A stretch of 64,000 nucleotides of DNA from Facklamia languida CCUG 37842. Its GTDB lineage: Bacteria; Bacillota; Bacilli; Lactobacillales; Aerococcaceae. The notes below the pieces were generated by a model, which saw nothing but the letters and a program-made list of their open reading frames with translations, ran no database searches and was not told the origin of the DNA. Below are positions 24,933 through 44,264 of the stretch, one piece after another. Every line of letters begins with the position of its first letter. The stretch's first letter is position 1. The stretch is taken from NCBI RefSeq assembly GCF_000245795.1, contig NZ_JH601133.1:1585411-1649410 (forward strand), in the 5' to 3' direction. Both the position numbers and the translations under genes were made by a program.

Positions 24933-25044
24933 GAAAGCACTCCTTATCGTATGATACTTTCATTCTAAGTCATTGCTTATTTGATAGCAAGCAGGGCGGT
25001 AGGGGTTCGGTCTACTAGGATTAAGGATAAAAAGGTTAGATAAT

Positions 25045-25125
25045 CGTCAATCAGGCAGGTACAATGCTTATCATAGGGGATCGCCCTCCAAAGCTTTGCT
25101 TTTTCAGGCTAGGACCACTAGGCAT
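25045..25125 (-). repeat. CR5, 5' half of a cloverleaf repeat (orientation A)
   Basis: It begins CGTCAATCAGGCAGGT and runs through P2 (CCAAAGC TTT GCTTTTTC) to CACTAGGC, then breaks off. P3 and the return arm of P1 are missing. Confidence 0.7.
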
Positions 25126-25157
25126 AAGGGATACAAAAAGTTAAAAAGAAAAGATAG

Positions 25158-25332
25158 CCGTCAATAAGTCAGGTTCCACTGCTTAATCATAGGGGACCGC
25201 CTTCCAAAGCTTTGCTTTTCCAGGCTCGATCCACTAGGCAATGCCTAAACGGTAAACCGTAAGGCATTGCACGCTACGTTGATCGTCCTCCTTCCTATGA
25301 TTAAGCATTGAACCCTGCCTTGTATTGACGGA
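25158..25332 (-). repeat. CR6, complete cloverleaf repeat (orientation A)
   Basis: P1 runs CCGTCAATA..CAGG..GCTTAATCATAGG to CCTATGATTAAGC..CCTGCC..TATTGACGG. The P3 base is CGATCCAC / GTTGATCG and the upper stem is GCAATGCC / GGCATTGC, the opposite A/T choice from CR3. Confidence 0.85.
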
Positions 25333-26037
25333 TTTTTTTGTCTTGTTTTATTTAAGCCATTTACTTTAATTTAGTCAGAAAAATAAGACCAATTTGATAG
25401 GATGCTGCCAATAAAAATGTTAAATCTTAATTCGAAGAAAGCAAAATATTTTTCCTAGCAAACCTGGTCTAACTTTCAAAAAGAAGGGATAAATATCAAC
25501 TATTAATCTAAGCCCAGCAAGTATAAAAGAAAACCTTGTCTTCATAGGTTGACATAACAGCTAACAATCGGAGGTTAGTTTACTTGTTTTCTCATAATAA
25601 GTAGCGGAAGATTTATTGAAAACCACAATCGTTAATGCTTGCTTTTGTTCATTGATAGGCAATTATAGATAAATTTATGAAATATTAGCATTCCTTCAGT
25701 AATAATGGCTGTCATACTTAACTTTTTCGGAAATCAAATATTAAATGGCACTTTTAATCTATTGATACAAGCTAATTGATGAAGCCAATACATAAGCAGC
25801 TAGTGTGATTTTAGCCATTCACTGCAACCTGTTTTAATATCACCCTTTCAAAAGCATCTGTTAGTCTCCATTAAAAATTAATCTTTATCCATTATCTTTG
25901 TGAAGGTAAGGCTTAAGTTAGGAACCTAAAATGGTTTAATTTGATCGAATAAGGTGTCACTATTAGATTGGAAGTCTATATTTGTTTTTTCTTATTTCGG
26001 CAACTGGATGAATTTACAAGTTATGAATATAAAAAAT
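25333..26037. other. AT-rich gene-free spacer of island 1
   Basis: About 700 nt lie between oppositely oriented CR6 and CR7, with no ORF of note. GGCAACTGGATGAATTTAC (25999-26017) is the exact reverse complement of 39854-39872. CTTTATCCATTATCTTTG (25883-25900) is the exact reverse complement of 43739-43756. The spacer therefore shares ancestry with the spacers of the two other islands, in the opposite direction. Confidence 0.6.
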
Positions 26038-26223
26038 AGATAATCAGTCAATAAAAGGCAGGTCTTACTACTTAATCATAGGAAGAAGGACGATCCACGC
26101 AGCTTGCAATGCCTTACGGTTTTACCGTCTAGGCATTGCCTAGTGGATCGAGCCTGGAAAAGCTTTGCTTTGAAGGGCAGTCCCCTATGATTAAGTAGTG
26201 GACCTGCCTTATTGACGATTATC
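26038..26223 (+). repeat. CR7, complete cloverleaf repeat (orientation B), best P1
   Basis: The outer stem is almost perfect over about 40 bp: AGATAATC..GTCAATAA..GGCAGGTC..ACTACTTAATCATAGG with its reverse complement at 26180-26223. The segment ACTACTT/AAGTAGT differs from other copies on both arms at once. P3 is CGATCCAC..GCAATGCC / GGCATTGC..GTGGATCG; its tip has one extra T. Confidence 0.88.
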
Positions 26224-26282
26224 TCACTTATAATATTTTTATTTCCTCTTTCATGCTTTTTGGATGTTTTTCTGAATTTCCT

Positions 26283-26311
26283 TTGCTTTCATAAACAAAA
26301 GCGACTAAAAT
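26283..26311 (+). promoter_or_regulatory. Probable promoter of the LCP gene
   Basis: TTGCTT (26283-26288), 17 nt, TAAAAT (26306-26311). Confidence 0.45.
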
Positions 26312-26347
26312 AGCCATGATTCATACCATGAAGGAGAAGATTTAATT

Positions 26348-27181
26348 ATGAAGAAAAGAACGTGCCATTTACTACTCGGCTTGGTCCTCTTAGTCAGTCT
26401 CATTGCGCCGACAACCACTGGCCAGGCCCGCAATCTCAAAGACCCCTTTGCGGTGCTCTTGATGGGAGTTGATACTGGAAAGGGGCGGGAGGATAAGGGA
26501 CGGTCGGATGTCATGATCTTGGCCACCGTCAATTTAGAAGCCAACCAGATTGATCTCTTCTCCATCCCACGCGATTCTTATGTCGCCATTCCTGGCCGGG
26601 GGCAGGATAAGATCAATCACGCCTATGCCTTTGGCGGTCCAGACTTGGCTCGCGAGACGGTGGCGGATTGGTTGGGCATCAAAGTCCCATATCACGCCTA
26701 TGTCGACATGGACGGTCTCCAAGCCATTGTTCAAGCAGTAGGGGGGATTGACCTAACGTCTACCACCAGCTTTGAGATGAGTGGTTATCAATTTGAAGCT
26801 GGCCAATCCTACCATATGGATGGTGATATGGCGGTCGCTTATGCGCGAGACCGGTCTGGGTCGGGTGGCGATTATGACCGGCAAGACCGGCAAAGACAGA
26901 TGATTCTTGCCATCTATCAGGCAATTAGCCAGCATTTGACGGGGGTCAAGGAAGCCATGGACATGGCATTCACCCTACGCAAATCGGTCAACACCAACCT
27001 TTCTCTAGTTGAAATGGGGCGCCTAGCCATGGCTTATCCCAAGGCTAACCCGCAGATTAACTTTCACCAGTTTGAAGGTGAGGGCATGATGAAGGATGAC
27101 ATCTACTATGAGCAGATCGCAGAAGAATCCTTGGTCAGCAATCTGGCCTTAATCAAGGACCAACTAAAAGGGCAGGACTAA
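26348..27181 (+). CDS. LytR-CpsA-Psr (LCP) family protein
   Basis: LCP enzymes transfer undecaprenyl-linked polymers (teichoic acid, capsule) onto peptidoglycan at the outer face of the membrane. This 277-residue form begins with a signal or anchor segment (residues 1-26) directly followed by the catalytic domain. Hallmarks are VLLMGVDT, GRSDVMILATVN, SIPRDSYVAIPG, KINHAYAFGG and YARDRSGSGGDYDRQDRQRQ. The conserved Asp/Arg residues for pyrophosphate binding are all present. It lacks the cytoplasmic N-terminal extension and accessory domain of longer LCPs. It is probably a sugar-polymer ligase working downstream of the galU/ugd pathway. Confidence 0.9.
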   Translation: MKKRTCHLLLGLVLLVSLIAPTTTGQARNLKDPFAVLLMGVDTGKGREDKGRSDVMILATVNLEANQIDLFSIPRDSYVAIPGRGQDKINHAYAFGGPDLARETVADWLGIKVPYHAYVDMDGLQAIVQAVGGIDLTSTTSFEMSGYQFEAGQSYHMDGDMAVAYARDRSGSGGDYDRQDRQRQMILAIYQAISQHLTGVKEAMDMAFTLRKSVNTNLSLVEMGRLAMAYPKANPQINFHQFEGEGMMKDDIYYEQIAEESLVSNLALIKDQLKGQD

Positions 27182-27187
27182 GCTTAA

Positions 27188-27574
27188 TCAGGGCGCTGAC
27201 TGATCGGTTGCTTCCGGGGCCAGGTGCATTTGTAGAACCTGACTCAGTTTCAGGTAGCGGGTCTCTTGCCCCTGCAAGGCCTTAAGCAGGATGAAGTCAC
27301 TGGTCAGATCGGTCACGACCCCGGTAAAGCTTTGGTGGGGTTTAGTCGGAGCGACTTGATAGGTGACCTGGATGGCCACCCCTTGGCTCAAGGCTTGGCT
27401 GGCCCAGAGGTAGACAGTAGGCTGGGGGAGACGGACGGAGTCTGTTGGGTCAAGGCGTTCTTGGGTCAAGGCTGCTTGGTGTTCTGACAAGAAGAAGCCC
27501 ATCCACTTGGCCATCTTGCGGTCTTGGTAGTTACGAGCAGCCGCTGAACGCAGGTAAGAGCGATCGACCATCAC
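27188..27574 (-). CDS. YolD-like protein
   Basis: This 128-residue protein starts with DRSYLRSAAARNYQDRKMAKWMGFFLSEH, the YolD-type helix (DRGxxKWxxFFxxPEH family pattern). A small beta domain (about 60-115) follows. YolD-like genes regularly sit with Y-family polymerases in Firmicutes, and here it overlaps the polymerase stop by 4 nt. Its biochemical role in the family is not settled. It would be induced with the polymerase from the LexA-controlled promoter. Confidence 0.8.
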   Translation of the reverse strand: MMVDRSYLRSAAARNYQDRKMAKWMGFFLSEHQAALTQERLDPTDSVRLPQPTVYLWASQALSQGVAIQVTYQVAPTKPHQSFTGVVTDLTSDFILLKALQGQETRYLKLSQVLQMHLAPEATDQSAP

Positions 27575-28998
27575 TCAAGACCTGCCAATCCACCGGCACC
27601 ACCTGCTGCATGGCCCCCAATTAGCTGGCTGCGGGCAATCGACCGGGACCCCTCCATCAAAGCCGAGGCAGGCAAGATCGAGGTGTAGCCAAATCGCTGG
27701 CGGATCTGGTCCAGGGTCTGATCCAAGGTCTCTTCTCGGATCACTTGGTCCGGTTCATCAAAGAGGGAGTAATAGTGGATACCCTCATCGACTAGACCGC
27801 TATAGCGGACGCCAATATTTCGCACGGGTAGGGGGTCTAGATAGTGGTCGCGAAAGAGCTGGCGGACCGTCTGGACCAAGACCTTGGTCTGGTGGGTGGG
27901 GTCAATGGTGACTTGGAGGTTTAAGCCCCGCTGGTCGACCTGGCGGGAATAGCCCACCCAGATATGGACCCGGGTGGCCTTCTTGTGCCGCCGCCTTAAG
28001 CGAATGGCGACTTGTTCGGCCATCTCGGTGAGGACCAGTTCAATCTCTTCAACCTGGTAGTAGTCGCGCGGTAGGACCTGTGAATTGCCTAGCCCTTGAG
28101 CCTTAGGGCGGTAAGGTTCTTGTACCTTGCTCTCATCGACGCCATGGGCATGGAAGAAGAGCTGGAGCCCCATGGTCCCTAGCTCTTGGTAGATCAAGTC
28201 GGGATCCGCATGGGCCAGGTCATAGATCGAATGGATCCCCAAGCGGTTGAGCCGCTTCTCGGTGCGATGCCCAATGCCCCAGAAGTCAGTCATCGGTTCG
28301 ATCGCCCACACCTTATCTGGGACATCTTCATAGGACCAATTGGCCCGCATGGTGGGGTTTTGCTTGGCTTCATTATCCAGGGCCAACTTGGCTAAGAGGG
28401 GGTTGGCATTGGACAGGCCAATGGTAGCCGCAATTCCGACCTTCTGCCAGATATCGCATTGAATGCTTTTGGCTAGAATCTCTAGCTTATTCTTGCGGGA
28501 CAGGCTGGGGTCTGGAATAAAATAGTTGAGCACATGGGTCAAGTCAATGAAGCCCTCGTCAATGGAATAGGGCAGAATATCTTCTTGAGGGGCATAGTGG
28601 CCAAGAATGGCGAGTATTTCTTGGTTCTTCTGGATATACCGCCCCATGCGGGGTGGCACAAAGAGGGACCGCTTAGCCCAGGATTCGATATAGTGGACAT
28701 AGGCGGGGTCTGTACGGAGCCCTTGTTGACGGGCTTTTTGGTAGTTAAAGCGCCGGTTATGGACATAAAAGGGCAAGTCATAGGTGCGTCCAACATTCTG
28801 CCTGCCAAAGACTTGCTTGAAGACGGGCGAAGAGGCCAGGATCAGGCCCTGACTGGTGTCGGTTTGACTCATGACGCACAGGCTCGTGCGCAAGGGGTGC
28901 AGGCCGCGATCCACGCATTCCACACTGGCATAGAAGGACTTCATATCAATGAAGGCAATATCAGAATGCGGTTCGCGCTGGTAATCAATGAGGGGCAT
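27571..28998 (-). CDS. uvrX: Y-family DNA polymerase, UvrX/UmuC type
   Basis: This 475-residue translesion polymerase starts at the ATG beginning 28998, because AAAGGAGG is 8 nt upstream; the longer frame to 29055 covers the promoter. The catalytic motifs are FIDMKSFYASVEC (first Asp/Glu set) and LPYSIDEGFIDLT (second Asp-Glu pair). The thumb helix-hairpin-helix (FWGIGHRTEKRLNRLGIHS) and little-finger domain follow. The C-terminus ALMEGSRSIARSQLIGGHAAGG is typical of UvrX. Expression is predicted to be SOS-induced. Confidence 0.9.
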   Translation of the reverse strand: MPLIDYQREPHSDIAFIDMKSFYASVECVDRGLHPLRTSLCVMSQTDTSQGLILASSPVFKQVFGRQNVGRTYDLPFYVHNRRFNYQKARQQGLRTDPAYVHYIESWAKRSLFVPPRMGRYIQKNQEILAILGHYAPQEDILPYSIDEGFIDLTHVLNYFIPDPSLSRKNKLEILAKSIQCDIWQKVGIAATIGLSNANPLLAKLALDNEAKQNPTMRANWSYEDVPDKVWAIEPMTDFWGIGHRTEKRLNRLGIHSIYDLAHADPDLIYQELGTMGLQLFFHAHGVDESKVQEPYRPKAQGLGNSQVLPRDYYQVEEIELVLTEMAEQVAIRLRRRHKKATRVHIWVGYSRQVDQRGLNLQVTIDPTHQTKVLVQTVRQLFRDHYLDPLPVRNIGVRYSGLVDEGIHYYSLFDEPDQVIREETLDQTLDQIRQRFGYTSILPASALMEGSRSIARSQLIGGHAAGGAGGLAGLE

Positions 28999-29022
28999 CC
29001 CCACCGCCTCCTTTCTGCAGTT

Positions 29023-29051
29023 AGTATATATCGAACAAATGTTCGTGTCAA
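29023..29051 (-). promoter_or_regulatory. SOS promoter with LexA box in the spacer
   Basis: On the minus strand: TTGACA (29051-29046), 17-nt spacer, TATACT (29028-29023). The spacer contains CGAACATTTGTTCG (29045-29032), a perfect match to the Firmicute LexA/DinR consensus CGAAC-N4-GTTCG. LexA bound there would block RNA polymerase directly. This is the clearest regulatory site in the window. Confidence 0.9.
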
Positions 29052-29119
29052 TCATTTGTTAGGGCCGACTGGGGACCGAATTGGCGCGCGAATTAGTGAA
29101 TCTATAAAGGAGTGAGTGC

Positions 29120-29608
29120 ATGGTTTTGGGACCTTTTCATTTGGGAATGCGGACCGTGAAGACGGGGATAGCCGTTTTTATTTGTATTTTATTATCTTTT
29201 TTTATTTTTCATGATAGCCCAATGTTGTCCTCTCTGGCCGCGATCTTTACCATTCGTGAGAACCTATCGACTTCCTATATCTTTGGTAAGGCGCGGTTGT
29301 TAGGCATTCTAGTGGCAGGATTGGTGGCGGGGGTCTTTATCCTCCTGGTTCCGATTCGCTCAGGGCAAGACCCACACTTAATCTGGTTGGTGCCCCTGGC
29401 CATTATGGCCTTTATCACGCTAGCCAATGGTCTAAAGGTCAATAAGGGTCTGATCTCTGGCAGTGCCACCCTCCTCGTGATCTTCTTCAATATTCCTCTG
29501 GATCATCAACTCAGCTATGCGGCGACGCGGGTCTTAGAGACAGCGATCGGGGTGGTAGTGGCTTTAGTTGTGAATTACCTCCTGCCCCATCACCACCAGG
29601 CAAAATAA
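29120..29608 (+). CDS. Aromatic-acid exporter (ArAE/FUSC)-like membrane protein, short
   Basis: This 162-residue protein has four to five hydrophobic segments and begins with the family-typical LGMRTVKTGIAVFICILLSFFIF. A loop IRENLSTSYIFGKARLLGIL follows. This matches the N-terminal membrane half of the DUF939/ArAE_1 proteins, which normally carry a cytosolic C-terminal helical domain of about 150 further residues. Here the frame ends after the membrane half, with no continuation visible downstream, so it is a short variant. Function is inferred only from family. Confidence 0.7.
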   Translation: MVLGPFHLGMRTVKTGIAVFICILLSFFIFHDSPMLSSLAAIFTIRENLSTSYIFGKARLLGILVAGLVAGVFILLVPIRSGQDPHLIWLVPLAIMAFITLANGLKVNKGLISGSATLLVIFFNIPLDHQLSYAATRVLETAIGVVVALVVNYLLPHHHQAK

Positions 29609-29627
29609 GATAATAAAGTAGAAACTT

Positions 29628-29636
29628 TGTTATAAT
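29628..29636 (+). promoter_or_regulatory. Extended -10 promoter of the flavin oxidoreductase gene
   Basis: TGTTATAAT (TGn extended -10) at 29628-29636; no good -35. Confidence 0.5.
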
Positions 29637-29661
29637 AACAAGAAATGAAGGAGGAATAATC

Positions 29662-30651
29662 ATGAAATTAGGGATTCACGACTTATTACCCTTAAGTGAT
29701 GGCGAAACGACCCAGGAACGCTATCAACGAACCATTGAAATGGTGCAAGCCCTAGAAACGATTGGCTATGACCGTTATTGGGCTTCGGAACATCATGGGG
29801 CGCGTCACTTAGCCAGTTCTGCTCCTGAAATCTTTCTGGCCTATCTAGCCAGCCGGACGAATAAGATTCGCTTAGGGACCGGTGGGACAATGATTGTCAA
29901 TTATTCGCCGTTGCGGGTGGCAGAGATCTTTAAGACCTTGACCCTCTTGGCACCAGACCGGATTGACCTGGGCATTGGCCGAGCCCCTGGAACGGACCAC
30001 CATGGCATGCTGGCCTTATCACAGGGGAATCCGGTTAACTTCGACTACCTCTTCGACAAGGCGCAAGTGATTCTAGACTACCTACGCGACCAAGAGCCTG
30101 CTGGCTTCTATTCCTTGGTCAAGGCCATTCCAGCGGAGACAGAGACCCTGGCCCAGCCTTGGATGCTCGGTTCAACAGGTAATTCAGCCTTGAAGGCGGG
30201 GGAGATGGGCTTGGGCTATTCTTTTGCCAAGTTCTTTGGGATTGAGATAGGCCCTGAAGTCTTCCAAACCTACCGCGACCACTTCAAGCCCAGTCCTTTC
30301 TTTGACCAGCCACAGGTGATGGCTTCCTATCTGATCATCCTAGCGGATACACCAGAAGAAGCCGACCGTCTGGCTCGTCCCATGGAAATCTCCAGTATTT
30401 CCGATCACAAGCAGGCGCTTAGGACCTTGGACCAGGCACAAGACTACACCTTCTCTCCCGAGGAAGAAGCCTTGTTAAAAGAGAAATATGACCGCCGATT
30501 TCTGATTAAAGGAACGCCAGAGACGGTTAAGCCGATTCTTAGAGATGAGATTGACCGGTATGGGATCGATGAATTGATGGCTTATATGCCGATCCCAGAC
30601 CAAGAAGCCCGGATCCATTCCTACGACTTGCTTTATCAGATCTTTCATTAA
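29662..30651 (+). CDS. Luciferase-like (LLM) flavin-dependent oxidoreductase
   Basis: This 329-residue bacterial-luciferase-fold protein is of the MsnO8-type LLM class. It shows LGIHDLLPLSDG, YDRYWASEHHGARHLASSAPEIFLAYLASRT and RLGTGGTMIVNYSPLRVAEIFKTL, then GRAPGTD. These build the TIM barrel and the FMN pocket. The natural substrate is unknown; family members oxidise small organic compounds or act as FMN reductase partners. It stands alone with its own promoter. Confidence 0.88.
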   Translation: MKLGIHDLLPLSDGETTQERYQRTIEMVQALETIGYDRYWASEHHGARHLASSAPEIFLAYLASRTNKIRLGTGGTMIVNYSPLRVAEIFKTLTLLAPDRIDLGIGRAPGTDHHGMLALSQGNPVNFDYLFDKAQVILDYLRDQEPAGFYSLVKAIPAETETLAQPWMLGSTGNSALKAGEMGLGYSFAKFFGIEIGPEVFQTYRDHFKPSPFFDQPQVMASYLIILADTPEEADRLARPMEISSISDHKQALRTLDQAQDYTFSPEEEALLKEKYDRRFLIKGTPETVKPILRDEIDRYGIDELMAYMPIPDQEARIHSYDLLYQIFH

Positions 30652-30778
30652 AGCCGATCCTTAAGGAGAACGTCTTAAAAAGCCCAAGACAACAGGAAGC
30701 AGAGGACCAGCTAAAGCTTATGGGGTCAGCGAGGGGCTGAAATCCGCCTTAAGGAGGAGGACATACCCCTTGCGATGC

Positions 30779-30811
30779 CTTATACTCAATTTGTCGATCG
30801 AAAAGTATAAG
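30779..30811. promoter_or_regulatory. 8-bp inverted repeat upstream of the DUF1232 gene
   Basis: CTTATACT (30779-30786) and AGTATAAG (30804-30811) form a perfect inverted repeat with a 17-nt spacer, 23 nt before the start codon. It could be an operator or a leader hairpin. The 180-nt gap 30652-30833 holds nothing else recognised. Confidence 0.4.
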
Positions 30812-30833
30812 ACATTAAAGGACGTGATGATTC

Positions 30834-31097
30834 ATGAAGATCAGACAAATAAGACGTTTTTTTGGTAATAAATTCCCACTCTTTATCCGGTCTCTCTTTA
30901 ATCGTCAGACCCCCTGGGGTGTACGCTTATTAATCCTCGCCACCCTGGCTTATGTCATTCTACCGGCTGATTTGCTGCCAGCCTTTCTGGTTGGACCGCT
31001 GGGCTGGATCGATGACGCCATCTTGCTTCCCCTAATGGTAGAATGGACCGTGTCGCTCTTACCGCAAGAGATGAAGCAAAAAGCCCTGACAGCATAG
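30834..31097 (+). CDS. DUF1232 (YkvA-like) small membrane protein
   Basis: This 87-residue protein carries the DUF1232 signature LLILATLAYVILPADLLPAFLVGPLGWIDDAILL, a membrane hairpin with the conserved P-D/A-DLxPxFxxxxGxxDD pattern. Family function is unknown. Confidence 0.8.
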   Translation: MKIRQIRRFFGNKFPLFIRSLFNRQTPWGVRLLILATLAYVILPADLLPAFLVGPLGWIDDAILLPLMVEWTVSLLPQEMKQKALTA

Positions 31098-31161
31098 GCA
31101 GGGTTCAGACCTAAAGATCCTTTCCCAAGATGGAAGAGCTGGTCTTAAAATCCATAGAATT

Positions 31162-31241
31162 AAAAACAGGCGTTGCGACCATGCATCGCAGAGAACCTTT
31201 CCATTTCCTGTGACTTCACCGTCGCTGCGGTCTGTTTTTTT
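31162..31241 (+). terminator. Long imperfect hairpin, likely terminator
   Basis: AAAAACAG-GC-G..GCGACC (from 31162) pairs with CGTCGC..C..CTGTTTTTTT (to 31241). The T run marks it as a probable terminator of the DUF1232 gene. Confidence 0.5.
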
Positions 31242-31363
31242 ATTGGGCTTAAATGGTAATAGAATAAGGGGCATTTTGATCGCTCTTTAACCTAATCGTT
31301 TGTTTAGGTTTTTGGACTTTATCCCACAGCCATAATTCGGTATAATGGGCGTCAGGTGATGAC

Positions 31364-32158
31364 ATGTATAAATTATTAATTTCAGATTTAGATGATACGT
31401 TATTGGACCCGCAGAAGCGGTTGAGTCCTGAATTTGAGGCCTTTGTCGAAGAACTCAAACAAAAGGAGGTCGGCTGGACCATTGCGACGGGCCGGTCTTA
31501 CCAGGCTTTTAAACCCTTCCTGGACCAACTCGACTTGGACTTGCCCTATGCGACCTCTAATGGGGCGACGATTCGCTATAAAGACCAAATCCTGCATTCC
31601 TTCCAGATGCCAATCGGTCCCCTAAGACCTGTGATTGAGGTGGCGATGGGGATGGGAATCAGTGTCCTCTATGTGATTGATGGTCAGGAATATGCGACCC
31701 AAGCGACTCCTTTTACCCAACATCAGACGAAGGATAATTTCTCCGACCAGGTCATCCGGCCCTTTGAAGATGCAGATTGGCCAAGCCTGAAGGTGGATAA
31801 GATCCTACTGGTGGATGATGCTGAGGAGACGGGGCTTGAGCGACTGATTGCCCTAGCGAACAAGTTGGGCCCCAACTATGATTATGTGACCTTCTCGGAT
31901 TGGGCCATGGATATTGTGGCCAAAGGAGTCAATAAGGGCAAGGCCTTAGAATGGATCTGTGACCATCTCGGCTTGACCTGCGACCAATGTCTGGCGGCAG
32001 GTGACAATCATAATGATACGGCTCTCCTGAAGGCAGCTGGCCATGGAATTGCGGTCTACAATGCTGAACGAGAAGTTAAATTGGCTGCGGATAGTATTGC
32101 TCCAGCGGCTTATGGCGATGGGGTCATCTATGAAGTCCGTCGTCTCCTCAACCGATAA
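31364..32158 (+). CDS. HAD-superfamily Cof-type phosphatase
   Basis: This 264-residue HAD hydrolase has motif I ISDLDDTLLDP (nucleophile Asp), motif II (WTIATGRSYQA), the Cof-type cap domain, a conserved Lys (AKGVNKGKAL) and motif IV AAGDNHNDTALLKAAGHGIAV. It dephosphorylates small phosphometabolites; the exact substrate cannot be read from sequence. A TATAAT lies at 31341-31346 without a clear -35. Confidence 0.88.
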   Translation: MYKLLISDLDDTLLDPQKRLSPEFEAFVEELKQKEVGWTIATGRSYQAFKPFLDQLDLDLPYATSNGATIRYKDQILHSFQMPIGPLRPVIEVAMGMGISVLYVIDGQEYATQATPFTQHQTKDNFSDQVIRPFEDADWPSLKVDKILLVDDAEETGLERLIALANKLGPNYDYVTFSDWAMDIVAKGVNKGKALEWICDHLGLTCDQCLAAGDNHNDTALLKAAGHGIAVYNAEREVKLAADSIAPAAYGDGVIYEVRRLLNR

Positions 32159-32165
32159 TCAAATA

Positions 32166-32201
32166 AGCCTGACCCCTGCTGAACAAGGGTCAGGCTCTTA
32201 T
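32166..32201. terminator. Bidirectional terminator
   Basis: AGCCTGACCC (32166-32175) pairs with GGGTCAGGCT (32187-32196) between convergent HAD and bioY genes. Confidence 0.85.
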
Positions 32202-32212
32202 TTATGGCTGGA

Positions 32213-32746: not shown

Positions 32747-32909
32747 GGTTAGCCTCCTTGTGCAATGCCTTTAAGTATAGGCTTTTCCTTGAACCTGTCA
32801 AGACGGGTCCACTGCTTGAAGCTTGAATCTCGTTATTTAATCAATTTAGTCTAGGTTGTGGGCGGTTTTTTTGATAGAATAGAGCGTATGTTAAGAAAGG
32901 AGCTTTGAG

Positions 32910-34403: not shown

Positions 34404-34417
34404 CAGTCAAATCAAAG

Positions 34418-34450
34418 AAAGACAGCCCCCGATTTTAGGGCTGTCTTTTT
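34418..34450. terminator. Bidirectional terminator
   Basis: AAAGACAGCCC (34418-34428) pairs with GGGCTGTCTTT (34438-34448), followed by more T. It overlaps the last codons of the minus-strand regulator. Confidence 0.88.
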
Positions 34451-38118: not shown

Positions 38119-38146
38119 ATAAATTTCCCTGAACCTTCTCTCACTG

Positions 38147-38173
38147 CCCCCTCCCTGCGGAGGGGGTTTTTTT
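38147..38173 (+). terminator. Rho-independent terminator
   Basis: CCCCCTCC (38147-38154) pairs perfectly with GGAGGGGG (38159-38166), 4-nt loop, seven T. Confidence 0.95.
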
Positions 38174-38225
38174 ATATCGGCAGGGGAAGGGTTTGTGATA
38201 GAATGAATAAAAGGGGGCAGGTCAG

Positions 38226-39131
38226 ATGTTAAAACTCCAGGATTTCTACCAGGGTGGCTACTACACCCCCATGCCGGAGATGCATAATTTAGGGATTCCG
38301 GTGACGGCCGGCTGTGATTATAACCAGTGCCGGTTTTGTGATTTGAATCACCTCCAACCCTTTCAGCACTTCCCCTTGGATAAAATTAAACACTATATCA
38401 CCGACCAGGCAGCTTTCTACCAGAACCAGCGGCGGAAGCCAAGCAAGTTTACCCTCTTAGAAGGGAATGCTTTATGCCGCGATACGGAAGACTTATTGAT
38501 CATCTTGGGCTATCTGCAAAGTGCCTTTCAAGTGGACTATGTCTCCACCTTTGCGCGCAGTTACGATATCTTGCGCAAATCACCGCAAGATCTTATCCGC
38601 CTCCACCAAGCTGGTTTGGACCGAATTTCAATCGGGATTGAGACGGGATCCGATACGGTATTACGCTACCAACAAAAGGGCGTTTCTGCTAAACACCAAC
38701 TAGTGGCCCTGCAAAAATTAGAAGAAGCTGGAATTCGTTATACCTGCTATATCATGCTGGGGCTGGGTGGGCGCCAGTGGAGCCAGGACCATGCCCAAAA
38801 GACAGCGGCCTTCTTAAACCAGGTCCACCCAGAAGAATTAACCCTTGTCACCATGGTCCTCTTCAAGGGAGCCGACCTAGTCCGGTCCGTCCGATCAGGT
38901 GAATTTCAGCGATTGACCGCCCGTGAGAGTTTGTTAGAAATGCGCCAACTCCTGGAGGGGCTGGAATTAACTACGGTCTTTAATGCGACCCATCCAACCA
39001 ATGCCTTGTCGCTAAAAGGGCGCTTACCTGAACATAAAGCACTTCTACTGGCCAAATTAAATACCTACTTAGACCAACATGATAGCCACCAAATTGAAGA
39101 GGACGTCCGCCTCAAATGGCAGACCCTCTAG
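38226..39131 (+). CDS. Radical SAM protein
   Basis: This 301-residue radical SAM enzyme has cluster cysteines C30, C35 and C38 in GCDYNQCRFC, a CX4CX2C spacing rather than the classical CX3CX2C. The barrel continues with KFTLLEGNALC, YVSTFARSYDIL, RISIGIETGSDTVLRYQQKG and YTCYIMLGLGG. These are elements shared with the YgiQ/HemN-like radical SAM families. No accessory cluster motif or B12 domain is visible. Substrate is unknown. A small membrane protein follows 33 nt later. Confidence 0.87.
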   Translation: MLKLQDFYQGGYYTPMPEMHNLGIPVTAGCDYNQCRFCDLNHLQPFQHFPLDKIKHYITDQAAFYQNQRRKPSKFTLLEGNALCRDTEDLLIILGYLQSAFQVDYVSTFARSYDILRKSPQDLIRLHQAGLDRISIGIETGSDTVLRYQQKGVSAKHQLVALQKLEEAGIRYTCYIMLGLGGRQWSQDHAQKTAAFLNQVHPEELTLVTMVLFKGADLVRSVRSGEFQRLTARESLLEMRQLLEGLELTTVFNATHPTNALSLKGRLPEHKALLLAKLNTYLDQHDSHQIEEDVRLKWQTL

Positions 39132-39164
39132 CAGAAGGAATCATATTAAGAAAGGACGATCCGC

Positions 39165-39494
39165 ATGCATCCTATTTATCAAAAATACTTACTCTTAGCC
39201 CTGGGGAGTGGGGCGGTAGTGGTCTTATTATCTCTTTTGAGTCACTATTTGGTCGGTGCTTTGGGAGTGGTGGTCTTCTTATTACTTATGGCTTGGCAGG
39301 AAAAGCGGGACTATGACCGGTTGGCCCAATTATCTCAGTGGATTCAAGCGCAAGACATGGACCTATACCAGGTCATGCAAACAACCGGCCTGCGTGAAGA
39401 CCAGGTCAAATTCCTTCAAAATCCACCTGTTCGTCCCATCTTTCGGTCACCGGATATTACTAGGGCGCTAAAGAAGATCAAGCAAGTGGACTAG
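39165..39494 (+). CDS. Small two-helix membrane protein, hypothetical
   Basis: This 109-residue protein has two adjacent hydrophobic segments (residues about 8-26 and 28-43) and a soluble C-terminal half containing a possible helix-turn-helix-like stretch (LYQVMQTTGLREDQVKFL). The start AAGGACG-like site is modest. Probably cotranscribed with the radical SAM gene. Not recognised. Confidence 0.6.
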   Translation: MHPIYQKYLLLALGSGAVVVLLSLLSHYLVGALGVVVFLLLMAWQEKRDYDRLAQLSQWIQAQDMDLYQVMQTTGLREDQVKFLQNPPVRPIFRSPDITRALKKIKQVD

Positions 39495-39502
39495 GGGAAA
39501 GA

Positions 39503-39612
39503 CCGTCAATCAGTCAAGTTCCAATGCTTATCATAGAGGACCGCCTTTCAAAGCAAAGATTTTCAGGGCTAGGCCCACTAGGCAATGCCTAAACGGTAAA
39601 CCGTAAGGCAAT
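39503..39612 (-). repeat. CR8, 3'-truncated cloverleaf repeat (orientation A)
   Basis: It starts ACCGTCAATCAGTCAAG and runs through P2 and most of P3 (GCAATGCC..GGCAATT, with the return arm damaged), then breaks into GATACTGGATTAAATAAG. The break point and the next 115 nt recur at 43256-43373. Confidence 0.75.
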
Positions 39613-39653
39613 TCAGATACTGGATTAAATAAGAAAAAATAAAAAGAGAGAGA

Positions 39654-39828
39654 ACCGTCAATAATGCAGGTCCACTGCTTAATCATAGGGGACCGCCCTT
39701 CAAAGCGGAGCTTTTCCGGGCTCAATCCACTAGGCATTGCCTAGACGGTGAACCGTAAGGCAATGCATGCTACGTGGATTGTCCCTCATTCCTATGATTA
39801 ATTAGTGAGACCTGCCTTTTATTGACGG
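39654..39828 (-). repeat. CR9, complete cloverleaf repeat (orientation A)
   Basis: P1 is CCGTCAATAA..GCAGGTC.CACT..TTAATCATAGG / CCTATGATTAA..AGTG.GACCTGC..TTATTGACGG. The P3 base is CAATCCAC / GTGGATTG, a fully compensated variant not seen elsewhere in the window. The upper stem is GCATTGCC / GGCAATGC. Confidence 0.87.
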
Positions 39829-40271
39829 ATTTTATGTTTTATGTTCATGTTTTGTAAATTCATCCAGTTGCCAAACAATAAAAAATGAATAAAGACTGCC
39901 GATATAATGACTGGTTCTTATGATTTATCGACCCTTACATTTGAAGATAAAAGGGTTAGCGTTCTTTTTTTAAAATAAGCAAATATAAAAGAGGGCTTGT
40001 TCTTATCGCTTCACATCAAGAATAGGGATTATAAATAGGGTTAGAAATAAATCTTACCAACTATTTTATTATTTAAAGTTATAAAGCCTTGCTGATGATC
40101 CAACAATAAGTGCCTTCCATATGCTTATGATCTTATATTCAAAATGCTCTGTTCATTTATTTTGTTTGCCTTTTATCGCTCAAGGAAGGCCATATGAAGG
40201 TTAGGCAAATAATCCTTTTATTTGCTAGATTAGTAAATATGTTTACCAATATTTGAGCAAGACCAAGAATA
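39829..40271. other. AT-rich spacer of island 2
   Basis: No gene. It shares inverted matches with island 1 (see 25999-26017). In direct orientation, AAAATGCTCTG and the final AATAAATAAAAGAAGG match island 3. Confidence 0.55.
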
Positions 40272-40443
40272 AATAAAAGAAGGATGTCTCAATGCTTAAT
40301 CAAAGAACAGTGGACGATCGACGCAGCTTGCAAGGCCTTACGGGTTACCGTTTAGGCCTTGCCTAGTGGATCGAGCCTGGAAAAGCAAGGCTTTGGAGGG
40401 CGGTCCCCTTTAATTAAGCATTGAGACTGCCTTCTTTTTTATT
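40272..40443 (+). repeat. CR10, complete cloverleaf repeat (orientation B)
   Basis: P1 is AATAAA..AGAAGG..GTCTCAATGCTTAATCAAAG paired with CTTTAATTAAGCATTGAGAC..CCTTCT..TTTATT. The upper P3 stem is GCAAGGCC / GGCCTTGC, the third compensated form (T-A changed to G-C). One base-stem mismatch is present (CGATCGAC / GTGGATCG). It ends in a T-rich CCTTCTTTTTTATT. Confidence 0.85.
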
Positions 40444-40477
40444 TGCTTCTTTTCACTATCCTTAAATTATGATGGAC

Positions 40478-40563
40478 TGAGGCCTTGCCTAGTTGACCAG
40501 GCCCGAAAAGCATAGCTTTGAAGGGCGGTCCCCTTTAATTAAGCATTGAGGATGGCCATCTTT
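40478..40563 (+). repeat. CR11, 3' half of a cloverleaf repeat (orientation B)
   Basis: It begins inside P3 (GGCCTTGCCTAG), keeps P2 and the return arm of P1 (TTTAATTAAGCATTGAGGATGG), and lacks the 5' arm. It follows a full B copy just as CR15 follows CR14. Confidence 0.7.
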
Positions 40564-40630
40564 TTGTTTACTTTTCGCATTTATCATTAATTAGGCTGGA
40601 CAGACTGTGCTATTGAATCCAGAATTATCC

Positions 40631-40659
40631 TTGACAAAGAATCTTTACTTTGTTAAGCT
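40631..40659 (+). promoter_or_regulatory. Promoter of the T-box operon
   Basis: TTGACA (40631-40636), 17 nt, TAAGCT (40654-40659), preceded by TGT giving an extended -10 feature. Confidence 0.6.
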
Positions 40660-40663
40660 CTCA

Positions 40664-40924
40664 CCAAGTTAATAAAAGTCAAGGCGTAAGAGAGTATGAT
40701 TCGGTGAATGACAGCGAGGTGAGATAGAGTGGAAGCTCACTCTGCAGCCGATTCAGAAACGCACTTACGGGACAAAATGGGTGAATCAATTAGCTCATTT
40801 CGCTGTCTGAGCGTTATCAAACTGAGTAAATCGGGAAGCAATTCCCCGTTTAGAATAAGAGTGGTACCACGGGCAGGACTCGTCTCTATCTTTCCAAGCG
40901 GAAAGAGGAGACGGGTCTTTTTTT
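40664..40924 (+). ncRNA. T-box riboswitch leader of the amino-acid transporter operon
   Basis: The T-box proper, AGAGTGGTACCACGGG, begins at about 40856. It is followed by a terminator, GACTCGTCTC (40877-40886) / GAGACGGGTC (40908-40917) with an inner CTTTCC/GGAAAG, and a T run. Stem I begins with CGTAAG pairing with CTTACG. The internal loop holds AGTA opposite GAA, the usual loop-E pair of specifier loops, followed by ACGCAC. Depending on register the specifier could be ACG (Thr), CGC (Arg) or CAC (His). Uncharged cognate tRNA would prevent termination. A short ORF crossing the leader is not a gene. Confidence 0.92.
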
Positions 40925-40956
40925 ATTAACATTGAAATGAAAGGAAGCGGTAAAAA

Positions 40957-41667
40957 ATGTGTGCAACCATCCAAATTGACTTTACGAAGATGATTCCATG
41001 GCTACCAACCTTCTTAGAGGGTACTCTGGTGACCATTATCTTGTCCTTGATTACGGTCATTTTAGGAACTATGGTGGGTCTCTTGGTCTTAGCCTCTAAA
41101 CAATCCGACTGGCGTATCCTGAAGGGGGTGGCTGGTCTTTATACGACAGTCATTCGAGGAACCCCCATGCTCTTGCAGCTGTTTATGTGGCTCTATGCCT
41201 TCCCATTGATTGGTTTGGTGATTCCACCCTTGCCGTTTCTAGGCAGTCTCTTCGGGTCGCGGGAATTTTTAACTGCTGTCTTGGCCCTGGCCATTAATTC
41301 TGGCGCTTATGTCGCCGAAATCCTGAGAGGGGGACTCGAATCGATTCCCAAAGGCCAGTGGGAGGCTGGACGATCTTTAGGTCTAAGTCAAGGGCAGACC
41401 TATCGTTATATCTTGATGCCCCAGGCCTTTAAGGTGGCGCTACCCGGTCTAGGGAATGAATTTATCACCATGATCAAGGAATCTTCCATCGTATCCGTGG
41501 TAGGGGTCTTTGACTTGATGTATACCCAGAATATTGTCAAGTCGGCGACCTATTCCTTGTTTGAACCCCTCATCCTGGTCGGGCTCATCTACTTGATTTT
41601 GACAACTACTTTAACCGGTTTAATGAAAGGATTGGAGGCGAAGTTAAATGTCCATTCTCAATATTAA
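40957..41667 (+). CDS. Polar amino-acid ABC transporter permease
   Basis: This 236-residue permease of the HisM/GlnP (PAAT) type has five hydrophobic segments and the EAA loop EAGRSLGLSQGQTYRYILMPQAFKVALPGLGNEF. TVIRGTPMLLQLF is the N-terminal family mark. As a single permease gene it would act as a homodimer. It is the first gene after the T-box leader and overlaps the ATPase gene by 20 nt. Confidence 0.92.
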   Translation: MCATIQIDFTKMIPWLPTFLEGTLVTIILSLITVILGTMVGLLVLASKQSDWRILKGVAGLYTTVIRGTPMLLQLFMWLYAFPLIGLVIPPLPFLGSLFGSREFLTAVLALAINSGAYVAEILRGGLESIPKGQWEAGRSLGLSQGQTYRYILMPQAFKVALPGLGNEFITMIKESSIVSVVGVFDLMYTQNIVKSATYSLFEPLILVGLIYLILTTTLTGLMKGLEAKLNVHSQY

Positions 41668-42388
41668 AGACTTAACCAAGTCTTACGGTGACTTACAGGT
41701 CCTAAAGGGGGTCTCCCTAGAGGTCGAAAAAGGGGAAGTGATTGCCCTAATCGGTCCTTCTGGTTCAGGCAAATCAACCTTGTTGCGGTGTATCAATCGA
41801 ATGGAGACACCGACATCTGGCGCGGTCTACTTTGATGACCAAGTCTTTGCGGGCGATAAAATTGACCAGAAGACCCTTAATCGATTACGGTCCAAGATCG
41901 GTATGGTCTTTCAGCACTTTAACCTCTTTCCGCATTTGACGGTCTTAGAAAATATCACCCTAGCCCCGATCAAGCTTCATTATCAGGATGAACAAACCGC
42001 TAATAACCAAGCCCAATCCCTCTTAGATAAGGTCGGATTAGAGGATAAGGGGCAGGCCTATCCCCACCAATTATCAGGTGGTCAAAAACAGCGGGTAGCG
42101 ATCGCAAGGGCCCTAGCGCTTAAACCAGAGATCTTGCTCTTTGATGAACCCACCTCGGCCCTCGATCCTGAACGGGTCAAGGAAGTCCTGAATGTGATTC
42201 AAGACCTGGCCTTAGAGGGCATGACCTTAATCATCGTGACCCATGAGATGTCCTTTGCCCAAAAAGTGGCCTCCCGGGTTGCCTTTATGGACCAGGGCCA
42301 GATCCTAGAAATCGGGTCAGCTGACCAGGTCTTTAACCATCCACAGTCCGACCGCCTACAAACATTTCTCAGACAAGTTGACTTCTAG
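41648..42388 (+). CDS. Polar amino-acid ABC transporter ATPase
   Basis: This 246-residue ATPase of the GlnQ/HisP type has Walker A GPSGSGKST, the signature LSGGQKQR, Walker B LLFDEPTSALD and the switch His (VTHEMSFAQ). Its length, without a C-terminal regulatory domain, is typical for amino-acid importers. Confidence 0.93.
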   Translation: MSILNIKDLTKSYGDLQVLKGVSLEVEKGEVIALIGPSGSGKSTLLRCINRMETPTSGAVYFDDQVFAGDKIDQKTLNRLRSKIGMVFQHFNLFPHLTVLENITLAPIKLHYQDEQTANNQAQSLLDKVGLEDKGQAYPHQLSGGQKQRVAIARALALKPEILLFDEPTSALDPERVKEVLNVIQDLALEGMTLIIVTHEMSFAQKVASRVAFMDQGQILEIGSADQVFNHPQSDRLQTFLRQVDF

Positions 42389-42409
42389 TGACGAATCAGG
42401 AGGAATCTT

Positions 42410-43258
42410 ATGAAACACCTTATCAAACTAACAAGCTTCTGCCTCATGTTGGTTCTATGTATCCTACCACCAAGCATTCAAGCGGCAGACCAATTAGCAG
42501 AAATCAAGGAAAGAGGCCGGCTCTTAGTTGGAACCTCGCCAGACTTTCCACCCATGGAATTCTACCACCTTAATGAAGAGGGCGGTAAGGAAATTGTCGG
42601 CAGTGACATTGCTTTAGCCCAAGCCATAGCGGATGAAATTGGCGTAGAATTGTACCTAGTGACGACAGATTTTAATGGCGTTTTAGCAAATCTACAAGCG
42701 GGCACCATTGATTTAGGGATTACCGGCCTCTCCAAAAGCAAGGAACGTGAAGCCGCTATGTACTTTTCTAAGCCCTACCAGCAGGAACAATCGGATGAAG
42801 GCTATCAGGGGATTGTGATGCATAAGGACTTGGCCGCCACTTTCCAAAACTTAGACCAGATCCAAGCGGCCCAATTAGTGGTCGGGGTCCAAGGGGGCTC
42901 GATCCAATATGAAACCGCCCAAACCTTGACGGAGAAGGGCCAGATCAAACAATTTGCGACCACTGATTCGGCGGTAATGGCCTTGAATGCGGGCGATGTT
43001 CAAGCGGTCGCGGTTTCTTCTTCGTCGTTTCTTCCCATGCTCGAGCGTTTTCCTGACTTGAGGCTCTTAGACCAAGCCGGTTATGACTTGGATCCAACGG
43101 GTTATTATGGTCAGAATGTTATCGGCTTTCCGCGCAGCCATGACAACCAGTCCTTGATTGATTTATGTAATCAAGTCATCGACCGTGCCATTGAATCGGG
43201 TCAGATGAAGGAATGGAGTCAATCTGCCAGAGAATTAGCCAAACAAGGGGCAGAGTAA
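42410..43258 (+). CDS. Amino-acid-binding protein of the ABC transporter
   Basis: This 282-residue family 3 solute-binding protein has a signal peptide (residues 1-25) ending at SIQAADQ without a lipobox Cys, so tethering differs from most Gram-positive binding proteins. The ligand-binding start GRLLVGTSPDFPPMEFY and GSDIALAQAIADEIGVEL fit cationic or polar amino acids. TIDLGITGLSKSKEREAAMYFSKPY is a family hallmark. With the T-box leader this suggests uptake of His, Arg or Thr; the sequence alone does not decide. The stop codon runs directly into repeat-derived sequence that recurs at 39605. Confidence 0.88.
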   Translation: MKHLIKLTSFCLMLVLCILPPSIQAADQLAEIKERGRLLVGTSPDFPPMEFYHLNEEGGKEIVGSDIALAQAIADEIGVELYLVTTDFNGVLANLQAGTIDLGITGLSKSKEREAAMYFSKPYQQEQSDEGYQGIVMHKDLAATFQNLDQIQAAQLVVGVQGGSIQYETAQTLTEKGQIKQFATTDSAVMALNAGDVQAVAVSSSSFLPMLERFPDLRLLDQAGYDLDPTGYYGQNVIGFPRSHDNQSLIDLCNQVIDRAIESGQMKEWSQSARELAKQGAE

Positions 43259-43373
43259 GGCATTGCAGATACTGGATTAAATAAGAAAAAATAAAAAGAG
43301 AGAACCGTCAATAATGCAGGTTCACTGCTTAATCATAGGGGACCGCCCTTCAAAGCGGAGCTTTTCCGGGCTA
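43256..43373 (+). repeat. Near-identical direct repeat of 39605-39720
   Basis: From AAGGCA through AGATACTGGATTAAATAAG to CTTTTCCGGGCT, the segment matches 39605-39720 almost base for base, differing in a few positions and one AG dinucleotide. The copies flank the T-box transporter operon in the same orientation. Confidence 0.85.
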
Positions 43374-43382
43374 GGACTACTG
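43304..43382 (-). repeat. CR12, 5' half of a cloverleaf repeat (orientation A)
   Basis: It holds the P1 left arm and P2 (CAAAGC GGA GCTTTT) and stops at GGACTACTGG. Its first part is within the direct repeat shared with island 2. Confidence 0.7.
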
Positions 43383-43423
43383 GAATTAAGTGATGCAAAA
43401 AACTATAAAAATAAAAGGTAGGA

Positions 43424-43601
43424 TACCGTCAATCAGGCAGCACCAATGCTTATCATAGGGGACCGCCCTCCAAAACAGAGTTTTTCCGGGCTAGGGCCAC
43501 TAGGCAATGCCTAGACGGTAAACCGTAAGGCATTGCACGCTACGTGGCCCTTCCTCTTTTCCTATGATTAAGACTTGGTACCTACCTTTTATTGACGGAT
43601 T
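43424..43601 (-). repeat. CR13, complete cloverleaf repeat (orientation A)
   Basis: The P3 base is GGGCCAC / GTGGCCC (compensated) and the upper stem is GCAATGCC / GGCATTGC. P2 is AAAAC / GTTTT, another compensated change from AAAGC / GCTTT. P1 is CCGTCAAT..TTATCATAGG / CCTATGATTAA..ATTGACGG. Confidence 0.87.
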
Positions 43602-43969
43602 CGATATTCTATTAATTTAAGATATTGATCCTTATTCCACTGGACAAAAAGGAAAAGAATGGATTCAAGGAGCGCCTATAAAATAAAGGAGGTCTGACTA
43701 TTTAATTAGACTAGCTACCTTTTTATCTCAAAGATAATGGATAAAGTAAAGCGGCTAAGCTAATAAAAATGAGACCATCCACGTACTTGTGAATTGATAT
43801 TTAAAATGCTCTGATTTTTATTTGATTTACATCTTGAAGGCTAAGTAAAACTAGGTTCATTCGACCAGCTTTCTTATAAAAGTAAAGTCGGGATGATTAG
43901 TCAAGTCCTTCCTTAATTGAGTCAAAAATATTTTTTTCATATTGGGCAAGGATTCAACAAGATCGACAA
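43602..43969. other. AT-rich spacer of island 3
   Basis: No gene. CAAAGATAATGGATAAAG (43739-43756) is the exact reverse complement of 25883-25900. Confidence 0.55.
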
Positions 43970-44140
43970 TAAATAAAAGAAGGCAGTCTCAATGCTTAAT
44001 CAAAGGACAGTGGACGATCCACGCAGATTACAAGGCCTTACGGTTTACCGTTTAGGCCTTGCCTAGTGGATCGAGCCTGGAAAAGCAAGGCTTTGGAGGG
44101 CGGTCCCCTTTAATTAAGCATTGAGGATGGCCTTCTTTTT
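43970..44140 (+). repeat. CR14, complete cloverleaf repeat (orientation B)
   Basis: Close relative of CR10 in position and sequence. P3 is CGATCCAC..CAAGGCC / GGCCTTG..GTGGATCG. P1 is GTCTCAATGCTTAATCAAAG / TTTAATTAAGCATTGAGGATGG, the right arm being slightly changed. Confidence 0.85.
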
Positions 44141-44175
44141 TATTTGCTTCCTCTTAACCATCATTAAATAATAAT

Positions 44176-44264
44176 GGACCGAGGCTTTGCCTAGTGGATC
44201 AATCCCGGAAAAGCAGAGCTTTGAAGGGCGGTCCTTTTTAATTAAGCATTGGGGAGCCTTTTTT
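44176..44264 (+). repeat. CR15, 3' half of a cloverleaf repeat (orientation B)
   Basis: Same truncation as CR11: starts in P3 (GGCTTTGCCTAGTGGATC), keeps P2 and the return arm (TTTTTAATTAAGCATTGG). Confidence 0.7.

What the first reader, a model, noticed from the sequence alone, without database searches (positions are those of the whole stretch)
25045..44264. Mirror-symmetric islands: half A, full A, AT-rich spacer, full B, half B
Three islands (25045-26223, 39503-40563, 43304-44264) share an order: truncated copy, then full copy in orientation A, then a 370-700 nt AT-rich gene-free spacer, then a full copy in orientation B, in two cases followed by a copy truncated the other way. Spacers share exact inverted matches (25999-26017 with 39854-39872; 25883-25900 with 43739-43756). 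The whole unit therefore looks like one composite element with structured inverted ends. It might be a non-autonomous mobile element, or a locus for a non-coding RNA.
Basis: partly seen in the sequence, partly recalled or inferred. Interest (0 to 1): 0.75.

Follow-up and report, generated by a model that had tools for sequence, protein, structure and literature searches.

The report
Mirrored structured repeats near chromosome terminus
Around the replication end of a Facklamia chromosome lie sixteen apparently gene-free islands, each bounded by two inward-facing copies of a strongly conserved folding sequence so far seen only in this bacterial family, most likely an undescribed non-coding mobile element whose mover is unknown.

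Summary
The three islands are among 16 in this 1.72 Mb Facklamia genome, all within 211 kb of the inferred terminus. Spacers are homologous end to end within three sets (435-769 columns, 77-82%); whole islands align over up to 1.2 kb. A full copy's nearest relative is its opposed partner in only 1 of 34 cases, so islands spread as units, not by local inverted duplication.

Each full copy folds as a three-way junction (z −12.4 for one). A covariance model finds the fold in 25 of 76 genomes of the family; in an order sample all 24 of 395 hits are in this family. 37 of 42 pairs show two-sided changes. Opposed neighbours face inward: 16 own, 9 in relatives, none outward. Rfam gives nothing, plasmids nothing; Y1 transposase is absent here.

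Best reading: a composite, non-coding, long-inverted-repeat mobile element with a structured, family-specific repeat as its ends, moved in trans by an unidentified enzyme. Not shown: empty sites, target duplications, transcription, the enzyme.

The parts
25043..25125 (+). Island 1, truncated ('half') copy: 5' arm plus first hairpin
   Evidence: nhmmer profile hit, model 2-85
25158..25343 (+). Island 1, full structured copy, left end
   Evidence: nhmmer E 1e-61 (a seed of the profile); covariance model 131 bits
25344..26032 (.). Island 1 AT-rich spacer, 689 bp, homologous (inverted) to spacers at 1559 and 1710 kb, in blocks to 1689 kb
26033..26219 (-). Island 1, full structured copy, right end
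   Evidence: nhmmer E 3e-63 (a seed of the profile)
39502..39615 (+). Island 2, truncated copy
   Evidence: nhmmer model 2-115
39654..39841 (+). Island 2, full structured copy, left end
   Evidence: nhmmer E 2e-63 (a seed of the profile)
39842..40269 (.). Island 2 AT-rich spacer, 428 bp, homologous to the spacer at 1545 kb (77% over 435 columns)
40270..40436 (-). Island 2, full structured copy, right end (different outer stem class)
   Evidence: nhmmer E 4e-42; outer stems read
40480..40550 (-). Island 2, truncated copy
   Evidence: nhmmer model 19-90
43304..43382 (+). Island 3, truncated copy
   Evidence: nhmmer model 2-80
43425..43611 (+). Island 3, full structured copy, left end
   Evidence: nhmmer E 1e-61 (a seed of the profile)
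43612..43971 (.). Island 3 AT-rich spacer, 360 bp; only short matches to other spacers
43972..44128 (-). Island 3, full structured copy, right end
   Evidence: nhmmer E 5e-41
44181..44253 (-). Island 3, truncated copy
   Evidence: nhmmer model 19-91
3896..4080 (-). Solitary full copy (fragment 3662-3714 beside it)
   Evidence: nhmmer E 8e-62 (a seed of the profile)
9371..9499 (+). Solitary copy
   Evidence: nhmmer E 2e-35
15282..15358 (.). Short palindromic remnant (arm plus hairpin on both strands)
   Evidence: nhmmer, two weak hits
58828..58951 (-). Copy in a direct pair
   Evidence: nhmmer E 2e-29
59348..59497 (-). Copy in a direct pair
   Evidence: nhmmer E 7e-36

Best explanation
Each island is one copy of a composite, non-coding, non-autonomous mobile element of about 0.7-1.7 kb. 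Its long terminal inverted repeats consist of a structured unit of about 180 nt: an outer stem, a side hairpin with a conserved internal loop, and a long second hairpin, meeting in a three-way junction. A truncated copy often lies outside it and roughly 65 bp of partly shared sequence inside it. The interior is AT-rich and without evident genes. The unit belongs to a structured repeat family of Aerococcaceae that in relatives also occurs as single or tandem copies, mostly on the strand of the gene upstream and within about 360 bp of its stop codon. Shown: homology of whole islands, ends that are not each other's closest kin, fixed inward polarity, conserved fold, restriction to one family in the samples searched, concentration around the replication terminus in this genome. 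Inferred: that the fold (as single-stranded DNA or RNA) is what an unidentified recombinase or transposase recognises in trans, that two inward copies define a mobile unit, and that the terminus bias reflects insertion preference or tolerance there.
For: 81 blastn hits in the own genome (including short arm matches); 72 covariance hits (a few on both strands of one place). Whole-island alignments of up to 1232 columns at 79-82%, either orientation; spacer homology. Opposed partner nearest in 1 of 34 comparisons. Inward polarity 16:0 own, 9:0 relatives. Fold z −12.4 for one copy. Covariation: 20 of 47 pairs in 46 own copies; 18 of 46 pairs in 4 relatives' copies aligned without a model; 37 of 42 pairs in 52 distinct sequences, 93.5% of cells paired against 29-43% when slid; 37 of 42 in a partly overlapping set of 46. 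Family: 25 of 76 genomes, 14 of 21 genera; order: 24 of 395, all in this family. Genes shared as neighbours between genera are few, about what I estimate for chance, so sites look independent. Terminus: 16 of 16 islands, 24 of 29 loci.
Against: No target-site duplication was recognised in the printed flanks (by eye); no empty orthologous site was found. The one congeneric site compared carries an island in both species, i.e. stable inheritance. No protein family recurs beside 40 copies except one that looks like ABC ATPases and short frames overlapping the repeat. Y1 transposase is absent. In the pair table the nearest copies are only 76-92% identical, so recent movement in this species is not evident. 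The sense bias in relatives (47 of 58) would also fit an RNA function; the own solitary copies examined do not show it (3 of 11). Terminus clustering is not seen in F. hominis.
Confidence: 0.6

Rival explanations
1. The structured unit is a cellular RNA element at mRNA 3' ends (a complex terminator, stability element or 3'-derived small RNA). Its copies are duplicated by ordinary means and kept for function; islands are two such elements facing each other.
For: Upstream gene on the unit's own strand: 16 of 20 in I. ruoffiae, 19 of 20 in G020, 12 of 18 in other relatives. A- and T-rich outer ends; conserved unpaired residues.
Against: Own islands lie between convergent genes once in 16. Own solitary copies examined: 3 of 11 sense. 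Spacers and ends travel together. In G020 a separate hairpin with a T run precedes 16 of the 17 printed copies (by eye).
Confidence: 0.22
2. The islands are chromosome-organisation sites of the terminus region, like matS in function, kept by selection and bound by a protein that reads the palindromic units.
For: 16 of 16 islands within 211 kb of the terminus, mean 90 kb against 429 kb expected, p 2e-10 with a cut-off chosen after seeing the data.
Against: In F. hominis the two mirror pairs (695 and 1635 kb; dnaA 1237 kb of 1898 kb) are not near the terminus. Five of 51 own full copies lie elsewhere, four of them within about 130 kb of dnaA. A short binding site would not need a three-way fold or spacer homology.
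Confidence: 0.08
3. Mirror symmetry arose at each site separately by template switching or inverted duplication at a palindrome near converging forks; the compensatory changes are hairpin-templated correction.
For: Palindromic units, inverted copies, terminus location.
Against: The opposed copies are nearest relatives in 1 of 34 comparisons. Spacers are homologous between islands. Conserved asymmetric internal loops across genera are not explained by arm correction.
Confidence: 0.05

Closest known systems
EFAR repeats of Enterococcus (named as MITEs in PMC3733652, passages seen; size, two stem-loops and stem-loop targets are recalled)
   Same: Lactobacillales; as recalled about 170 nt, multi-stem fold, intergenic, variable length, association with hairpins
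   Different: Sequence homology could not be tested. No match outside this family in the order sample, which may not include E. faecalis. Mirror composite islands and terminus bias are not known to me for EFAR.
BOX / SPRITE repeats of pneumococcus (PMC3049150, passages seen)
   Same: Structured repeats of one lineage, BOX modular; SPRITE enriched near 3' ends of genes; no empty site found for SPRITE
   Different: Described as boxA and boxC around boxB arrays, or an 18-bp duplex with a U-rich tract, not a three-way junction at both ends of an AT-rich spacer. No direct sequence comparison was made.
REPINs with RAYT transposases (PMC3116915, abstract and passages seen)
   Same: Inverted pair of palindromic units as the mobile entity; singlets as possible remnants; structure in single strands
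   Different: Unit is about 180 nt with a three-way junction, spacer 266-841 bp, and Y1_Tnp is absent from this genome and 13 of the other 24 carriers.
Classical bacterial MITEs (PMC2229807, passages seen)
   Same: Non-coding, terminal inverted repeats, AT-rich interior
   Different: Inverted repeats of hundreds of bases, total about 0.7-1.7 kb rather than under 200 bp, no recognised target duplication, no cognate IS found.

Membership tests
REPIN/RAYT system | Two REP units in inverted orientation form the unit | tested here: met
   16 own and 9 relatives' inward pairs, 0 outward; the units are far longer than REPs
REPIN/RAYT system | RAYT (Y1_Tnp, PF01797) encoded in the genome | tested here: not met
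   Absent from own genome; comparing, absent from 14 of 25 carriers, present in 11 of 25 carriers and 25 of 51 non-carriers
MITE | Non-coding unit with terminal inverted repeats, multicopy, whole-unit homology | tested here: met
MITE | Target-site duplication / empty sites | tested here: inconclusive
   Flanks read by eye, element ends blurred by outer half copies; one congeneric site occupied in both species
MITE | Cognate transposase with matching ends | tested here: inconclusive
   No candidate recurs among frames beside 40 copies in two relatives, but these frames were not all annotated and the own genome was not scanned for all transposases
Rfam RNA families | Match at or above a family's gathering score | tested here: not met
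   0 matches in the window; in four loci with copies, 8 matches at E 0.06 to 9.8, all below gathering score
EFAR | Sequence homology to E. faecalis EFAR | not testable with these tools
   No EFAR sequence at hand; order search gave no match outside this family
matS/MatP-like terminus system | Sites concentrated in the terminus region | tested here: met
   16 of 16 islands within 211 kb, 46 of 51 full copies within 215 kb; not so for mirror pairs of F. hominis
matS/MatP-like terminus system | Dedicated DNA-binding protein | not tested
   MatP not searched

The most novel reading that the evidence does not exclude
A new kind of mobile DNA whose ends are recognised by a conserved three-way-junction fold rather than by sequence, moved as single strands by an enzyme unrelated to Y1/RAYT, with insertion coupled to converging replication forks so that copies collect around the terminus. 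This would be an Aerococcaceae counterpart of integron attC or REPIN logic with its own recombinase.
Probability: 0.2. Interest if true: 0.85.

Novelty: new variant of a known kind. Interest (0 to 1): 0.62.

Why it matters
It adds an apparently undescribed, strongly covarying structured repeat family (25 of 76 genomes of the family; the listings of seven paper searches, showed no description of it in the open-access library searched). It shows such a unit serving as the two ends of a larger, apparently protein-free island that spreads as a whole. If the mover is found it would give another example of structure-guided DNA mobility. The terminus clustering makes a link between replication and insertion testable in a small genome. 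It also warns against annotating such conserved folds as riboswitches or small RNAs without further evidence.

Tried and rejected
Origin-clustered or parS-like role: rejected, dnaA and two parS-like sites lie at 753-763 kb, opposite the islands. RAYT/REPIN: rejected for lack of Y1_Tnp. Phage or plasmid origin: no match in plasmids; in phages none for the G020 unit and one piece of 4% of the query, E 0.009, in a Pelagibacter phage for an own island. A loose pattern in viral contigs gave 80 stretches (possibly the listing limit), none of which matched the covariance model. Known Rfam RNA: none. Idea that the element splits host terminators at their apex (in my notes): dropped, because in I. ruoffiae the outermost stem shows shared motifs and within-copy pairing exceeds cross-copy pairing only in part (22 copies, mean −14.5 against −8.4 kcal/mol; 45 of 462 cross pairs as good as the median). 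Spacer as structured RNA: 13 of 106 pairs with two-sided changes in four own spacers, z −2.6 for one of them on 20 shuffles; one relative's spacer gave z −4.2; left open for that genus. Half copies as a folding unit: z −0.5 to 0.6 for four. Positional conservation between genera: few shared neighbours, about my rough estimate of chance. A Bacillus-type dif site in the window: none. The half-full order as a record of sequential insertions: considered, not tested.
Full report
WHAT WAS CHECKED. The three islands exist as described. The window is 1585411-1649410 of a single-contig genome of 1,717,767 bp. One 'same genus' genome, G004, has a contig of 1,897,623 bp, the length of the Facklamia hominis CCUG 36813 contig found by protein search, so the genus is taken to be Facklamia, family Aerococcaceae, order Lactobacillales. 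G009 likewise matches Ignavigranum ruoffiae by a contig of 168,603 bp.

HOW MANY. A blastn query with one copy gave 81 places. In the 18 sequences then held (17 stretches plus the window) a profile gave, after removing opposite-strand shadows, 77 copies: 46 long ones, called full, and 31 truncated. A covariance model over the genome gave 72 hits. I treat the 51 of 78 bits or more as full copies; they form 29 loci more than 3 kb apart. Sixteen islands have the order '+ copy, spacer, − copy'.

WHERE. dnaA lies at 763 kb and two perfect parS-like sites at 753-754 kb. The antipode is 1.62 Mb, and GC skew changes sign near window position 52 kb, i.e. 1.637 Mb (the skew was seen in the window only). 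All 16 islands lie within 211 kb of 1.637 Mb (mean 90 kb, 429 kb expected), and 24 of 29 loci within 215 kb (p about 1e-10; the cut-off was chosen after seeing the data). Of the five loci outside, four lie at 637-789 kb, near dnaA, and one at 1228 kb. In F. hominis the two mirror pairs are at 695 and 1635 kb with dnaA at 1237 kb of 1898 kb, so terminus clustering is not general.

ISLAND ANATOMY. Spacers are 266-841 bp, GC 0.27-0.32, longest open stop-to-stop segment 79 aa. One 243-bp candidate frame in the 1689 kb island is the only one of at least 80 codons inside an island, in a greedy script. Spacers fall into homologous sets. The set 1559/1610 (inverted)/1710 matches at 77-82% over about 700 bp, and 1689 joins it in two blocks. 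The pair 1461/1696 matches at 78% over 769 columns, and 1545/1625 at 77% over 435. The set 1426/1524/1572 and the pair 10/14 match in part; the 86, 1518 and 1628 kb spacers show only short matches. Including ends, 1559 and 1610 align over 1232 columns at 81%. From these alignments I take the inverted repeat to reach roughly 350-420 bp: half copy, full copy and a shared inner stretch. Flanking frames are divergent in 6 islands, tandem in 9 and convergent in 1.

UNITS, NOT LOCAL DUPLICATIONS. For 34 full copies with an opposed copy within 1.5 kb, that partner is the most similar of the other 45 copies in 1 case; its median rank is 18. The nearest copy is usually an end of another island, sometimes a solitary copy. 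Within the sets with homologous spacers it is often the corresponding end (for instance the right ends at 1545, 1625 and 1629 kb). Opposed neighbours within 1.5 kb face inward in 16 of 16 own cases and 9 of 9 in relatives; same-strand neighbours number 6 and 19. Positions for this count were copied from the outputs, and the list was cut, so the relatives' total is a part only. Two of the nine lie at orthologous sites.

THE FOLD. One full copy folds at −89.7 kcal/mol against −41.7 for shuffles, z −12.4; with DNA parameters z −12.6. Among 46 own copies 20 of 47 predicted pairs show two-sided changes. Diverged copies were found in I. ruoffiae and another genus. Four of them, aligned by MAFFT without a covariance model, give 46 predicted pairs, 18 with two-sided changes. 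A 63-match alignment (52 distinct rows) has 37 of 42 pairs with two-sided changes and 93.5% of cells paired, against 29-43% when the partner is slid. A set of 46 copies from I. ruoffiae and G020, partly the same copies, gives 37 of 42 and 90.1%, against 29-41% slid. Both of these alignments were fitted to the model and lean towards it; one search was not. Unpaired positions are conserved, including a junction strand, a pyrimidine-rich internal loop and a bulged C (read). Such asymmetry points to recognition as a single strand, RNA or DNA; this is inference.

DISTRIBUTION. R2 matched 24 of 395 sampled genomes of the order, all 24 in this family (only nine candidates per genome were scored, so weak matches elsewhere could be lost). 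Copy number per carrier ranges from 1 to at least 48. Plasmids gave no match; phages gave none or one chance-level piece. A plain DNA query found 3 of 60 genomes, one of them the own.

CONTEXT IN RELATIVES. For 20 copies each of I. ruoffiae and G020 (of 25 and 29 then known) the frame upstream of the unit is on the unit's own strand in 16 and 19 cases. In 18 further copies of four genomes it is 12 (opposed pairs and second members of tandem pairs were left out). Together 47 of 58, p 2e-6, taking copies as independent. Genes here are open frames of at least 80 codons called by script, not annotated genes. In G020 the repeat is about 320 nt, and by eye 16 of 17 printed copies follow a hairpin with a T run. 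Of 11 own solitary or partial copies examined, 3 are sense; the own solitary copies of the window and a few others were not examined. One orthologous site in two species of a second genus carries a mirror island in both, so islands persist between congeneric species. Mirror pairs in relatives lie between tandem frames in 5 and convergent frames in 3 of the 8 examined.

MOVER. Among 212 open frames around 40 copies the only families recurring at three or more loci are one that looks like ABC ATPases (one member is 43% identical to the window's ABC transporter ATPase; that name is my reading) and short frames overlapping the repeat itself. Y1_Tnp (PF01797) is absent from the own genome and present in 36 of 76. 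Set, it is present in 11 of 25 carriers and 25 of 51 non-carriers, so there is no association. Other recombinase families were not profiled.

LITERATURE. Seven searches were answered (the last listed nothing); their listings named no such family in Aerococcaceae. Passages were seen in PMC3733652, PMC2267715, PMC2229807, PMC3116915 (abstract and passages) and PMC3049150. Details of EFAR structure and targets are recalled, not read.

CONCLUSION. The islands are best read as copies of a composite, apparently protein-free, long-inverted-repeat mobile element built from a family-specific structured repeat. Composite nature, unit spread, polarity and fold are shown; mobility in trans, the recognised form and the cause of terminus clustering are inferred.

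Noticed in passing
window 40630-40930: T-box-like leader (GGTACCACGGG motif and a terminator-like end, by eye) before an ABC transporter operon; not reported by Rfam at gathering score.
   Followed up: no
L237 6687-6804, L238 922-1039, L239 9926-10042, L249 2913-3030: In I. ruoffiae a second subfamily of the unit lies about 200 bp upstream, same strand, of the main one, giving ordered direct pairs.
   Followed up: partly
L236 4886-4990; spacers in L244 and L318: In genus g4 the spacer between opposed units holds a run of three short hairpins shared by different islands (by eye; fold).
   Followed up: partly
L200 1501-1642, L211 1501-1642: In a congeneric genome (G002) the first hairpin carries an extra inserted stem-loop of about 25 nt.
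   Followed up: no
L242, L266-L285: G020 copies are much alike over about 320 nt, end in a terminator-like hairpin and sometimes occur head to tail (by eye), suggesting fairly recent spread.
   Followed up: partly
L020 2068-6333; L236 1531-5627: A PNPase gene (Pfam) and the small gene next to it (rpsO by recall) are bracketed by these units both in the own genome and in G007.
   Followed up: partly
own genome 613-789 kb: Solitary and partial copies near dnaA are all found on the minus strand; one palindromic remnant at 698 kb is hit on both strands.
   Followed up: no
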